Source of the DNA: Branchiostoma floridae
Lineage: Eukaryota > Chordata > Leptocardii > Amphioxiformes > Branchiostomatidae
Assembly (NCBI RefSeq): GCF_000003815.2
Contig: NC_049981.1
Span: 14,591,559 to 14,655,558 of the forward strand
DNA length: 64,000 nt
Direction of reading: 5' to 3'
The notes below the pieces were generated by a model. That model was not told the origin of the DNA. It ran no database searches and saw nothing but the letters and a program-made list of their open reading frames with translations. Position numbers and translations under genes: made by a program. This document shows positions 34,841 through 58,785 of this stretch, piece after piece. Numbering within the stretch: position 1 is the stretch's first letter; each line of letters starts with the position of its first letter.

Positions 34841-37800
34841 ATGAGGGGTGGGTACCTTCAAGTGCTCGCCGTTCTGCTGTGCCTGGTACATCTGAGTCAT
34901 GCCGGTGAGATTTTTCTAGGTTATAGATATCAGTTACAGAACTCAAACTACAATGAAATTTGACTATTCTGAATAATAAGATCGTAAATATCAATACTAG
35001 CTCTATCCTTTTGGAACAAGCTCGTTCACACTTCGCGTGCGCGGTGACAAGAATTGTGGGTAATGTATCAAACGTGACTCTGGCACACAAAACAGATAGT
35101 GAAGATGACATAGTTGAATAAAGTCAAAGTCAAACATGACAAAGCTTATTCCAAAATTGCTGTTACCTAAGAGCAAAATATCAAATAACTTATCTAACGA
35201 CGTATCCCATTCCTCTTCATGAATAATTACTCGGTCATTTGTAAAAGTAGTAGCAGCATTACAAGGTGATGTGATCTCGCCCTGCAAGGCATTACAATTT
35301 GACAGATACTTTGATACATTGATTGATTGATTGATTGATTGATCGATTGGTTGATTGATTGATTGATTGGTTGATTGATGCCTATGAAACATTCCAGGTT
35401 GTTGTTTGAAGAAGATGACATTCCCTGAACCGGCATCGACCAGTAACTACGTCCGGCTGAACGTCACCACGCCTCCCGGGCTCGATGCTCTGACCGCGTG
35501 TGTGCAACTTCGCATCTCAAACACGACAGAGGGGGAGCTGTTCAGCTACAACAGCGGCGGTGATCAGATTGCATTAAACTACTACGAACATTTCAGGGTA
35601 CAACTATTCTATTCATCACCTCCGTGAACGGAGAGTGTTCTTTTTGGTGTTCTGTGTTTCTGTGCTTTTTTATACTATACGTAGAGGAATCTCACCACAG
35701 AGTGACAGTAAAGGGCAAAAGGTCAGATTTGTGTGAGGGACAGGAATTAGAGTTCAGCGTTTATAGAACTGGTTATTCATCAACCTTTCCTGGGAGCGAA
35801 CAGACATTCCAAGTCTTGGGATCAATAAGCTATTGAAGAGACCACTCACGCATGGGGATGTATTAATATTGTTGTTGGTATGTCCGTCAGTTATATTAAG
35901 CGTTATCTATTAGGTGTAAGTGAACAAATGTTTAACACAAACACCTGTAATGATGATAATATTGATATTTTCATAGTATCAAGTAGGTTGAAAAACTTTG
36001 CATGCCCCTGTGAACGTAGGTAAGACATTATTCTATGCTGACTCATGAAGCTTTTTGTATTTATAAGATATTTTATCCATGATATGCTTTTTGTTCAAAA
36101 CCAATGTAATTTGCTTCGATTTCAGTTCTGGATCAACGGTGCATACAAACACGCCGCGGCCAATGAGACAAGACTGAACCTTGACGACGGCAGATGCCAC
36201 ACAGTGTGCTACACCTGGCTGAGTCAGGACGGCCGATGGTCTTTCTACGTCGATGGACAACAGGTCGGCGCCGGCTCTGGATTGGCCACAGGTCACGTGA
36301 TCCGTACAGGCGGCGCATGGATTCTTGGCCAAGAGCAGGACTCAGTTGGAGGGTCTTTTGATGTCGACCAGGCAAGTGAAGGCCATGCTCTTATATTACC
36401 TTCGCCAAGAAGGTTATGTTTTCGATGTGTTTGTCTGTGCGTGTGTTTCTCTCTCTGTGCCCCCCCCCCCCCCCTCTCTCTCTCTCTGTGCGTTTGTTTG
36501 TCTGTGAACAGCATAACTCGAGAAGCCTTGGATGGATCCTGATGATATTTGGTCGGTGGGTAGGGTCAGGATAATGGCCCCAAGCGGCTTTCTAAGCTAC
36601 TGCAGCGGAACTTTTTGATATCTCGTTTATTTGGTAGGATTTACTACTGTGTCAGTTCTAATGCAAATACCGTTTTATCCTATCCAGGCATACACCGGTG
36701 ACCTGTCATGCTTTAACGTGTGGGATCGTGTCCTGTCACCGAGAGAGGCTGATCTCACTCTGCGTAAGTGCGGACAGGGAGGCAACCTATTTGACTGGCC
36801 CAGCAAAGCGTGGAAGATATACGGGAACGTACCACTCACTGACAACCAATGTGGTAAGCCAGTCAAGACGTTGTCATGCAATGGTCGTACGATTTTGATG
36901 CCATAGGACTTTCAAGCAGGTTGTGACAGAACCAACCAAAGACATTATAGGATCTAAAATAGCCTTTTTCTGTATGTAGCAAGAAAGCTGAAGTTTATTT
37001 TTGCAGGACACATGCATGACGATCGCATGACGTATGTGGCCACACTCTTAGATTGAAAAATATTCTGAAGCAACATTTTACTATAATTTCTAACAGCACT
37101 GAACGAAAGTATATCAAAGTTTCCACTGAACAGCACCAGTTGTTGTCAATTGAGCGAGCTGCTTCAATATTAATCTACACTTATATGGTGTTATGTAGAT
37201 GTTAGACACAGTTTGGTCGGTGATCAGCGTCTATAATCCTGTGCATGATTTGACAGACGTTTGCCGGTCATGATGTCACCTAGAACTGCACCTAGAACGT
37301 TAAAGCTTAACACACAAGATGACGACAGTTCTAAAAAAATCACGTGACCCGTGACATCATGTGCTATTGCAGTATGCCATACGATGTTATGCCAAAATAA
37401 AGATAGCGGCGGATGCACGTGGGTGGGTCATTTTGGTAGTCTACTGGAATATGGGAGGACCTTTTGTTGTGAGATAATCTGAATCTAATACAGATTTTTG
37501 TTTTGTTTTGATGCAGACGCCTTCCGATCCCCCAGCATGTCTGCATCGTCAGAGTGGGGCAACACCGAGGGGCCAGACAACGGTGTGCTGGATTTCCAGA
37601 AGACTGCTGAGCTCTCCGGAGGTTGGGTGCCTAGAACACCTGATCAACACCAATGGCTGATGGTGGATCTTCACAAGACGTACTTTATAACGGGGATAAT
37701 CACCCAGGGTAGGAATGGATACGACGACCGTCAGTGTGTAACATCGTACAGCATCACGTATGGCGTGCACGGCGGAGACGAGATTACCTACAGCGATGAC

Positions 37801-58785: not shown

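What the first reader, a model, noticed from the sequence alone, without database searches (positions are those of the whole stretch)
34841..58785. Polycystin-1-like protein with a pentraxin/discoidin/LamG/lectin/FN3 ectodomain
Seen: one continuous phase-consistent gene joins five different ligand-binding folds to a GPS, PLAT and 11-TM polycystin chassis. Known: vertebrate PKD1-family members carry LRR, PKD/REJ, SUEL or C-type lectin domains, not pentraxin plus two discoidins. Inferred: a lineage-specific multi-ligand sensor, perhaps for microbes or apoptotic membranes, coupled to channel or GPS signalling. I see no REJ or Ig-like PKD repeats.
Basis: partly seen in the sequence, partly recalled or inferred. 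Interest (0 to 1): 0.9.

Follow-up and report, generated by a model that had tools for sequence, protein, structure and literature searches.

The report
Polycystin with pentraxin-lectin ectodomain
One large gene of what looks like an amphioxus joins a chain of sugar- and lipid-binding type modules to a polycystin-1-type membrane receptor-channel; it belongs to a small family in that genome and is a new arrangement of known parts whose ligand and job are still unknown.

Summary
The observation largely holds. The window carries one about 24-kb, about 40-exon gene model (34841-58785, +): signal peptide, pentraxin, discoidin, LamG/ConA-like domain, C-type lectin, FN3 array, Ser/Thr-rich linker, GAIN/GPS-like region, TM1, PLAT, TM2-5, TOP domain and six-TM channel. 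No REJ was found.

It is not unique. Four near-copies on C9 and a diverged copy on C18 (Ks 0.95) share most of the exon order; splice register was tested in three C9 copies and C18b and held. Distant loci on C19 and C17 start pentraxin, discoidin, FN3s, with a polycystin downstream. Of 70 pentraxin loci, 12 (seven clusters) have a polycystin downstream on the same strand, 0 on the opposite strand. This argues against two adjacent genes; no transcript was examined.

Corrections: the second discoidin is frame-broken and undetected in C9 and C18b; the fifth FN3 lacks two bases beside an assembly gap; Pfam does not recognise the GPS. A microbe or apoptotic-cell sensor is untested.

Best reading: a PKD1-type receptor/channel subunit with a shuffled ectodomain. 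New variant of a known kind.

The parts
34841..34904 (+). exon 1: start codon and signal peptide (MRGGYLQVLAVLLCLVHLSHA)
   Evidence: matched in C9c (81%), C9d (76%), C18b (62%), 3 of 7 loci
35398..36853 (+). pentraxin domain, exons 35398-35597, 36126-36371, 36688-36853 (GC-AG intron after 36371)
   Evidence: Pfam Pentaxin 5.7e-36; nearest solved relatives neuronal pentraxin-2 6.4e-32 and -1 3.1e-30
37517..38260 (+). discoidin (F5/8 type C) 1, exons 37517-37815 and 38119-38260
   Evidence: Pfam F5_F8_type_C 1.8e-24
38641..39639 (+). LamG/ConA-like domain, exons 38641-38971 and 39326-39639
   Evidence: Pfam Laminin_G_3 on the second exon, 4.3e-15; second stretch
40119..40579 (+). discoidin 2, frame-broken near 40403-40411; bounded by phase-1 introns, so skippable in frame
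   Evidence: no match in C9a-d, C18a or C18b; a relative lies upstream of the C19:3.70 Mb pentraxin
41207..41831 (+). C-type lectin domain, exons 41207-41416 and 41640-41831 (QPN and WND motifs)
   Evidence: Pfam Lectin_C 2e-18; motifs
41981..43777 (+). FN3 domains 1-4, one exon each: 41981-42268, 42434-42715, 43014-43289, 43517-43777
   Evidence: Pfam fn3 2.7e-39, 4 stretches
44199..44621 (+). FN3 domain 5, exons 44199-44340 and 44532-44621; two 1-base deletions against paralogues; runs into N gap
44870..46001 (+). Ser/Thr-rich linker exons (44870-45001, 45946-46001; further small exons likely); start of the first is uncertain
   Evidence: the 44870 acceptor is not conserved in 3 of 3 C9 copies tested
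46202..48456 (+). GAIN-like juxtamembrane region
   Evidence: position and paralogue conservation; no Pfam hit
48634..49408 (+). GPS-like region (C..W..W..C..CKCHMT) and TM1; boundaries of the first exon uncertain
50282..51583 (+). PLAT/LH2 domain
   Evidence: Pfam PLAT 4.5e-17; PDB 6a70_B polycystin-1 3e-36 over PLAT to TM3
51844..53618 (+). TM2-TM5
54185..56198 (+). TM6 (S1), polycystin/TOP domain, S2-S3
   Evidence: Polycystin_dom 1.7e-11
55599..58093 (+). polycystin cation-channel region; pore motif LGR where PKD2 has LGD
   Evidence: PKD_channel 1.4e-26; PKD2 chains from 1e-28
58550..58785 (+). terminal exon: possible coiled coil (by eye), stop codon

Best explanation
The locus is one gene for a PKD1-type polycystin: a chain of shuffled extracellular modules (pentraxin, discoidin, LamG-like, C-type lectin, FN3 array, Ser/Thr-rich stalk, GAIN-like region) on an 11-TM PLAT/TOP/channel body. 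Most likely it is the large regulatory subunit of a heteromeric polycystin channel with PKD2-type partners; the ectodomain binds glycans or other surface or matrix ligands, possibly including glycans of the partner's TOP domain, and so sets channel opening. Shown here: domains, order, splice register, constraint, paralogue family. Inferred: single transcript, heteromer, ligand gating, location.
For: Domains. Shared exon order in C9 copies and C18b, apart from modules named in the report; conserved splice register. In C9c, C9d and C18b the same script chains coding exons in phase from the signal peptide into the polycystin part. Ka/Ks is below 1 in every domain group in 4 of 4 comparisons (overall 0.42, 0.41, 0.42 to C9a, C9c, C9d; 0.29 to C18b). 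Directional pairing of pentraxin and polycystin at 12 of 70 loci in seven chromosomal clusters, 0 opposite-strand downstream. C19:4.64 Mb and C17 repeat pentraxin-discoidin-FN3 with PLAT 17 and 28 kb downstream, and C19 has GAIN and TM1 exons just before its PLAT. Ectodomain modules whose both borders are visible are bounded by phase-1 introns. Precedent: passages of PMC7728438 report that the C-type lectin domain of human PC-1 is needed to activate PC-1/PC-2 and may act on the TOP domain.
Against: No transcript seen. Two modules are frame-broken as assembled. GPS and GAIN are not recognised by Pfam. C9c shows no GPS or TM1 exon in its fetched stretch, which holds 794 N. The pore motif LGR instead of LGD raises doubt that it conducts by itself. 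The C-type lectin, the module with the mechanistic precedent, was not detected in C18b or in the first 10 kb of C19:4.64 Mb and C17. The C9 copies are recent duplicates and not independent of each other.
Confidence: 0.72

Rival explanations
1. Two adjacent genes: a secreted pentraxin-discoidin-lectin-FN3 protein followed by a short polycystin, fused only by gene modelling.
For: No transcript was available. A paper on cephalochordate proteomes warns that odd domain fusions can be prediction errors and shows one with a PKD_channel domain (passages of PMC6071037). Intron sequence still aligns to C9 copies, so these are recent duplications that would carry two neighbours together. The acceptor of the first linker exon is not conserved. 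My script's score for ending early or late cannot tell a fused gene from two in-phase neighbours.
Against: C18b (Ks 0.95), C19:4.64 Mb and C17 keep the pairing at far greater divergence; 12 same-strand downstream against 0 opposite-strand; Ser/Thr-rich linker sequence lies between the halves and is partly conserved.
Confidence: 0.08
2. The window copy is a decaying pseudogene of a functional family.
For: Frame breaks in discoidin 2 and FN3-5.
Against: The other modelled exons are open and align to C9 copies; the window lineage's N/S count ratio of 1.06-1.22 is not higher than that of the C9 lineage, 1.44-1.61; the FN3-5 deletions lie within 60 bases of an assembly gap; discoidin 2 can be skipped in frame (phase 1 at both borders), while the far border of FN3-5 is hidden by the gap.
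Confidence: 0.15
3. A pattern-recognition receptor-channel for microbes or apoptotic membranes.
For: Pentraxin, discoidin and lectin folds; calcium-loop motif GQEQD in the window copy and QDQD in C19:4.64 Mb and C17; multicopy family.
Against: The motif is changed in 5 of 5 near paralogues read; no sign of positive selection, all Ka/Ks groups below 1, though pentraxin and discoidin are among the highest, 0.49-0.68 to C9 copies; the lectin domain of PC-1 has an intrinsic, non-immune role.
Confidence: 0.15
4. A gamete-recognition protein, like some sea urchin REJ proteins of the same superfamily.
For: Superfamily precedent (PMC1934368 abstract and section 6).
Against: No REJ found; no expression data.
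Confidence: 0.08

Closest known systems
Vertebrate PKD1 / PKD1L1-3 / PKDREJ (PKD1 family)
   Same: signal peptide, large ectodomain, TM1 then PLAT, 11 TM, TOP domain, channel region; C-type lectin occurs in hPKD1 and hPKD1L2
   Different: pentraxin, discoidin, LamG-like and FN3 modules; no PKD repeat or REJ found; GPS degenerate; LRR of PKD1 is recalled, not tested
Sea urchin SpREJ proteins
   Same: deuterostome multigene polycystins, some with C-type lectin, 11 TM and PLAT (PMC1934368 section 6)
   Different: no REJ domain here, which that paper's abstract gives as the defining feature of that set
Adhesion GPCRs with pentraxin (ADGRG4, ADGRG6)
   Same: pentraxin ahead of a GAIN domain (passages); weak sequence match 4.9e-5 and 5e-7
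   Different: 7-TM GPCR body instead of the 11-TM polycystin body; this pentraxin is closer to neuronal pentraxins
Other pentraxin-headed polycystin loci of the same genome (C9 x4, C18 x2, C19, C17; with REJ between: C4, C7 x2)
   Same: pentraxin 5' of a polycystin on the same strand
   Different: C9 copies show no discoidin 2 or FN3-2; C18b shows no C-type lectin; C4 and C7 have REJ hits between pentraxin and channel

Membership tests
PKD1 family (PMC1934368 section 6: 11 TM, GPS, PLAT) | PLAT domain after TM1 | tested here: met
   Pfam PLAT 4.5e-17, TM1 just upstream
PKD1 family (PMC1934368 section 6: 11 TM, GPS, PLAT) | 11 transmembrane segments, the last six channel-like | tested here: met
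   9 by hydropathy, 2 by alignment to solved polycystins; PKD_channel 1.4e-26
PKD1 family (PMC1934368 section 6: 11 TM, GPS, PLAT) | GPS before TM1 | tested here: inconclusive
   Cys/Trp pattern and position fit; no Pfam hit at E<=10
PKD1 family (PMC1934368 section 6: 11 TM, GPS, PLAT) | works with a PKD2-type partner | not testable with these tools
   needs protein work
REJ / SpREJ subfamily | REJ domain | tested here: not met
   no hit in the spliced pieces; none of the 91 listed genome REJ matches lies in the window locus (93 of 125 candidates scored); not filed here
Pentraxin (domain) | pentraxin sequence with calcium-loop motif | tested here: met
   5.7e-36; GQEQD aligned with neuronal pentraxins
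Adhesion GPCR | 7-TM GPCR body | tested here: not met
   polycystin body instead

The most novel reading that the evidence does not exclude
Amphioxus has evolved a multicopy class of pentraxin-headed receptor-channels in which humoral-type pattern-recognition modules directly gate a polycystin cation channel, giving an innate recognition route with no vertebrate counterpart.
Probability: 0.12. Interest if true: 0.85.

Novelty: new variant of a known kind. Interest (0 to 1): 0.5.

Why it matters
The ligands of polycystin ectodomains are poorly settled. A natural family that keeps the PLAT/TOP/channel body but differs in whole lectin, pentraxin, discoidin and FN3 modules is an evolutionary domain-swap experiment on how polycystins are gated. 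It also suggests that pentraxins, best known as soluble proteins, have been fixed to a channel subunit, apparently in both REJ-bearing and REJ-less polycystins of one genome.

Tried and rejected
Chance adjacency of a pentraxin gene and a polycystin gene was rejected by the strand test and by diverged loci with the same order. Parts of the automatic model were rejected on homology and paralogue alignment: exon 35687-35721, the ends of the pentraxin exons, the splice round discoidin 2, and the split of 55599-56198. A CRP-like pentraxin was refined to neuronal-pentraxin-like. NCBIfam, tried on the pentraxin only, gave nothing. A GPS family search of the genome did not complete and was not repeated. 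No structure prediction was run, because the spliced product is not a contiguous reading of the window. Nine paper searches listed no paper whose title, abstract start or passages I saw describe pentraxin joined to polycystin; this is one open-access library, and automatic protein databases, where the combination may stand unremarked, could not be searched.

Full report
Setting. The window is G000:C3:14591559-14655558 of a 513-Mb, 431-contig genome.

Gene. A self-trained exon-chaining script started at the ATG at 34841 gave 41 exons to a stop at 58785. I corrected it by eye and homology: exon 2 runs to 35597 and joins 36126 in phase 0; exon 35687-35721 is dropped; a GC-AG intron follows 36371 and the next exon starts at 36688; discoidin 2 is read on through 40406 instead of being spliced round; 55599-56198 is one exon. 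In the resulting 40-row list, rows 9, 10 and 17 lie in the two damaged modules and are not proper exons; the first exon of FN3-5 starts at 44199. Pfam on the spliced pieces gives pentraxin, discoidin, C-type lectin, four FN3, PLAT, TOP and channel domains, and neither REJ nor PKD repeats at E<=0.1; the LamG/ConA-like domain is called at 4.3e-15 on 39336-39617. Against solved structures the pentraxin is closest to neuronal pentraxins 2 and 1 (6.4e-32, 3.1e-30), the PLAT-to-TM3 part to polycystin-1 (3e-36), and the channel to polycystin-2 (from 1e-28, against 4.5e-7 for PKD1L3 and no polycystin-1 at 0.001). The pore motif reads LGR where PKD2 reads LGD; the models of C9c and C18b read LGR and LGA.

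One gene or two. The pentraxin found near-copies on C9 (four), C18 (two) and C19:3.70 Mb. Exon-by-exon comparison of the fetched stretches shows the C9 copies in the same order as far as they were fetched, with discoidin 2 and FN3-2 not detected; C9c also shows no GPS or TM1 exon. C18b runs pentraxin-discoidin-LamG-FN3-GAIN-GPS-PLAT-channel with no detected C-type lectin. C18a holds 10.5 kb of N. The 20 kb fetched at C19:3.70 Mb show the pentraxin, a discoidin-2 relative upstream, two weak C-type-lectin matches (29% and 33%) and no polycystin exon. Splice sites are in register in 115 of 118 acceptors and 112 of 114 donors tested over C9a, C9c, C9d and C18b. The script run on C9c, C9d and C18b chains exons in phase from the signal peptide into the polycystin part; its scores for paths that go on exceed those for paths that stop before the GAIN region (441 v 193, 414 v 211, 350 v 130), which shows continuing coding exons in phase but cannot by itself exclude a second gene. 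C9d's stretch ends before its last channel exons, its model ends early, and the models contain some doubtful extra exons. Ka/Ks is below 1 in every domain group in 4 of 4 comparisons (exons 1, 9, 10, 14, 17, 18 and 19 were not in the groups). Since introns still align to C9, C9 alone could be two neighbours duplicated together. The stronger evidence is divergence: C18b at Ks 0.95; C19:4.64 Mb with pentraxin, discoidin and FN3s at 31-64% identity, GAIN and TM1 exons at 4652287-4654196 and PLAT 17 kb after the pentraxin; C17 with pentraxin, two F5/8-type domains and FN3s at 20-53% and PLAT and channel 28 and 35 kb on. Of C19:4.64 Mb and C17 only the first 10 kb were read. In a hand-collapsed list of 70 pentraxin loci, 12 have a polycystin hit within 45 kb downstream on the same strand (seven clusters: C3, C4, C7, C9, C17, C18, C19), 0 downstream on the opposite strand, 3 upstream on the same strand (each beside a neighbouring copy of an array) and 1 upstream opposite. 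At 3 of the 12 (C4, C7 twice) REJ hits lie between.

Damage. Discoidin 2 shifts frame between TLQNSQVA and SPYNWEDVV and has no detected counterpart in C9a-d, C18a or C18b. FN3-2 (42434-42715) has a 50% relative at C19:4.64 Mb, so it was probably lost in C9. FN3-5 lacks two single bases present in C9a, b, c, d and C18b, close to the gap at 44622. The other modelled exons are open, and the window lineage is not less constrained than its sister by raw N/S counts (1.06-1.22 v 1.44-1.61), so assembly error or skipped modules are likelier than an old pseudogene.

GPS. The region has the C..W..W..C..CxC pattern but Pfam finds neither GPS nor GAIN at E<=10, and the cleavage triad is HMT in the window, HVT in C9a, RVT in C9d and DMA in C18b. 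Autoproteolysis should not be assumed.

Mechanism. Family precedent, from passages of PMC7728438: the PC-1 N-terminus, its C-type lectin domain in particular, activates PC-1/PC-2 and may act on the PC-2 TOP domain. I infer the same logic here, with added binding modules. The calcium loop of the pentraxin is GQEQD in the window and QDQD in C19:4.64 Mb and C17, but changed in 5 of 5 near paralogues read, so ligand binding by the pentraxin may differ between copies. A microbial ligand is possible but unsupported.

Literature. PMC1934368 (abstract, section 6) notes hPKD1L3 lacks REJ yet counts as PKD1 by TM, GPS and PLAT. PMC5318412 (passages) says invertebrate PKD1-like evolution seems complex and homology limited. 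PMC8846589 (passages) gives a sea anemone polycystin 1 with PKD, REJ and WSC. PMC6071037 (passages) treats a cephalochordate fusion with a PKD_channel domain as a suspected error. PMC13197933 (passages) describes pentraxin-bearing adhesion GPCRs and polycystin-1 as an atypical one. PMC10199209 and PMC6019070, passages, did not bear on the architecture.

Verdict.

Noticed in passing
G000 C4:9.910-9.929 Mb and C7:11.09-11.18 Mb: Pentraxin, then REJ, then PKD_channel hits on one strand: possible pentraxin-headed REJ-type polycystins, a second kind.
   Followed up: partly
G000 C196:206525-209436: Contig outside the main set with GAIN/GPS exons 82-84% identical to the window: a further copy, perhaps another haplotype.
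   Followed up: no
G000, genome-wide: 158 PKD_channel and 91 REJ matches, counted by exon and as lower bounds: a very large polycystin family.
   Followed up: no
G000 C9c stretch (L030-L032): One C9 copy shows no GPS/TM1 exons although its PLAT and channel exons are present; its stretch holds 794 N.
   Followed up: no
L045 1357-2049 (C17): An extra F5/8-type domain (F5_F8_type_C_2 3.2e-14) between pentraxin and discoidin at the C17 locus.
   Followed up: no
36372: A GC-AG intron in the pentraxin; the C9a, C9c and C9d readings go on past the exon end with an alanine codon as here, so the GC donor looks conserved.
   Followed up: partly
43890-44055: Long CA repeat inside the FN3-4/FN3-5 intron, upstream of the N gaps at 44622 and 45051.
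   Followed up: no
61422-62579, - strand: 385-aa open frame that looks like an intronless rhodopsin-type GPCR (by eye).
   Followed up: no
21378-22427 + and 24801-25754 +: Open frames that look like a monocarboxylate-type transporter and a leucine-rich-repeat membrane protein (by eye).
   Followed up: no
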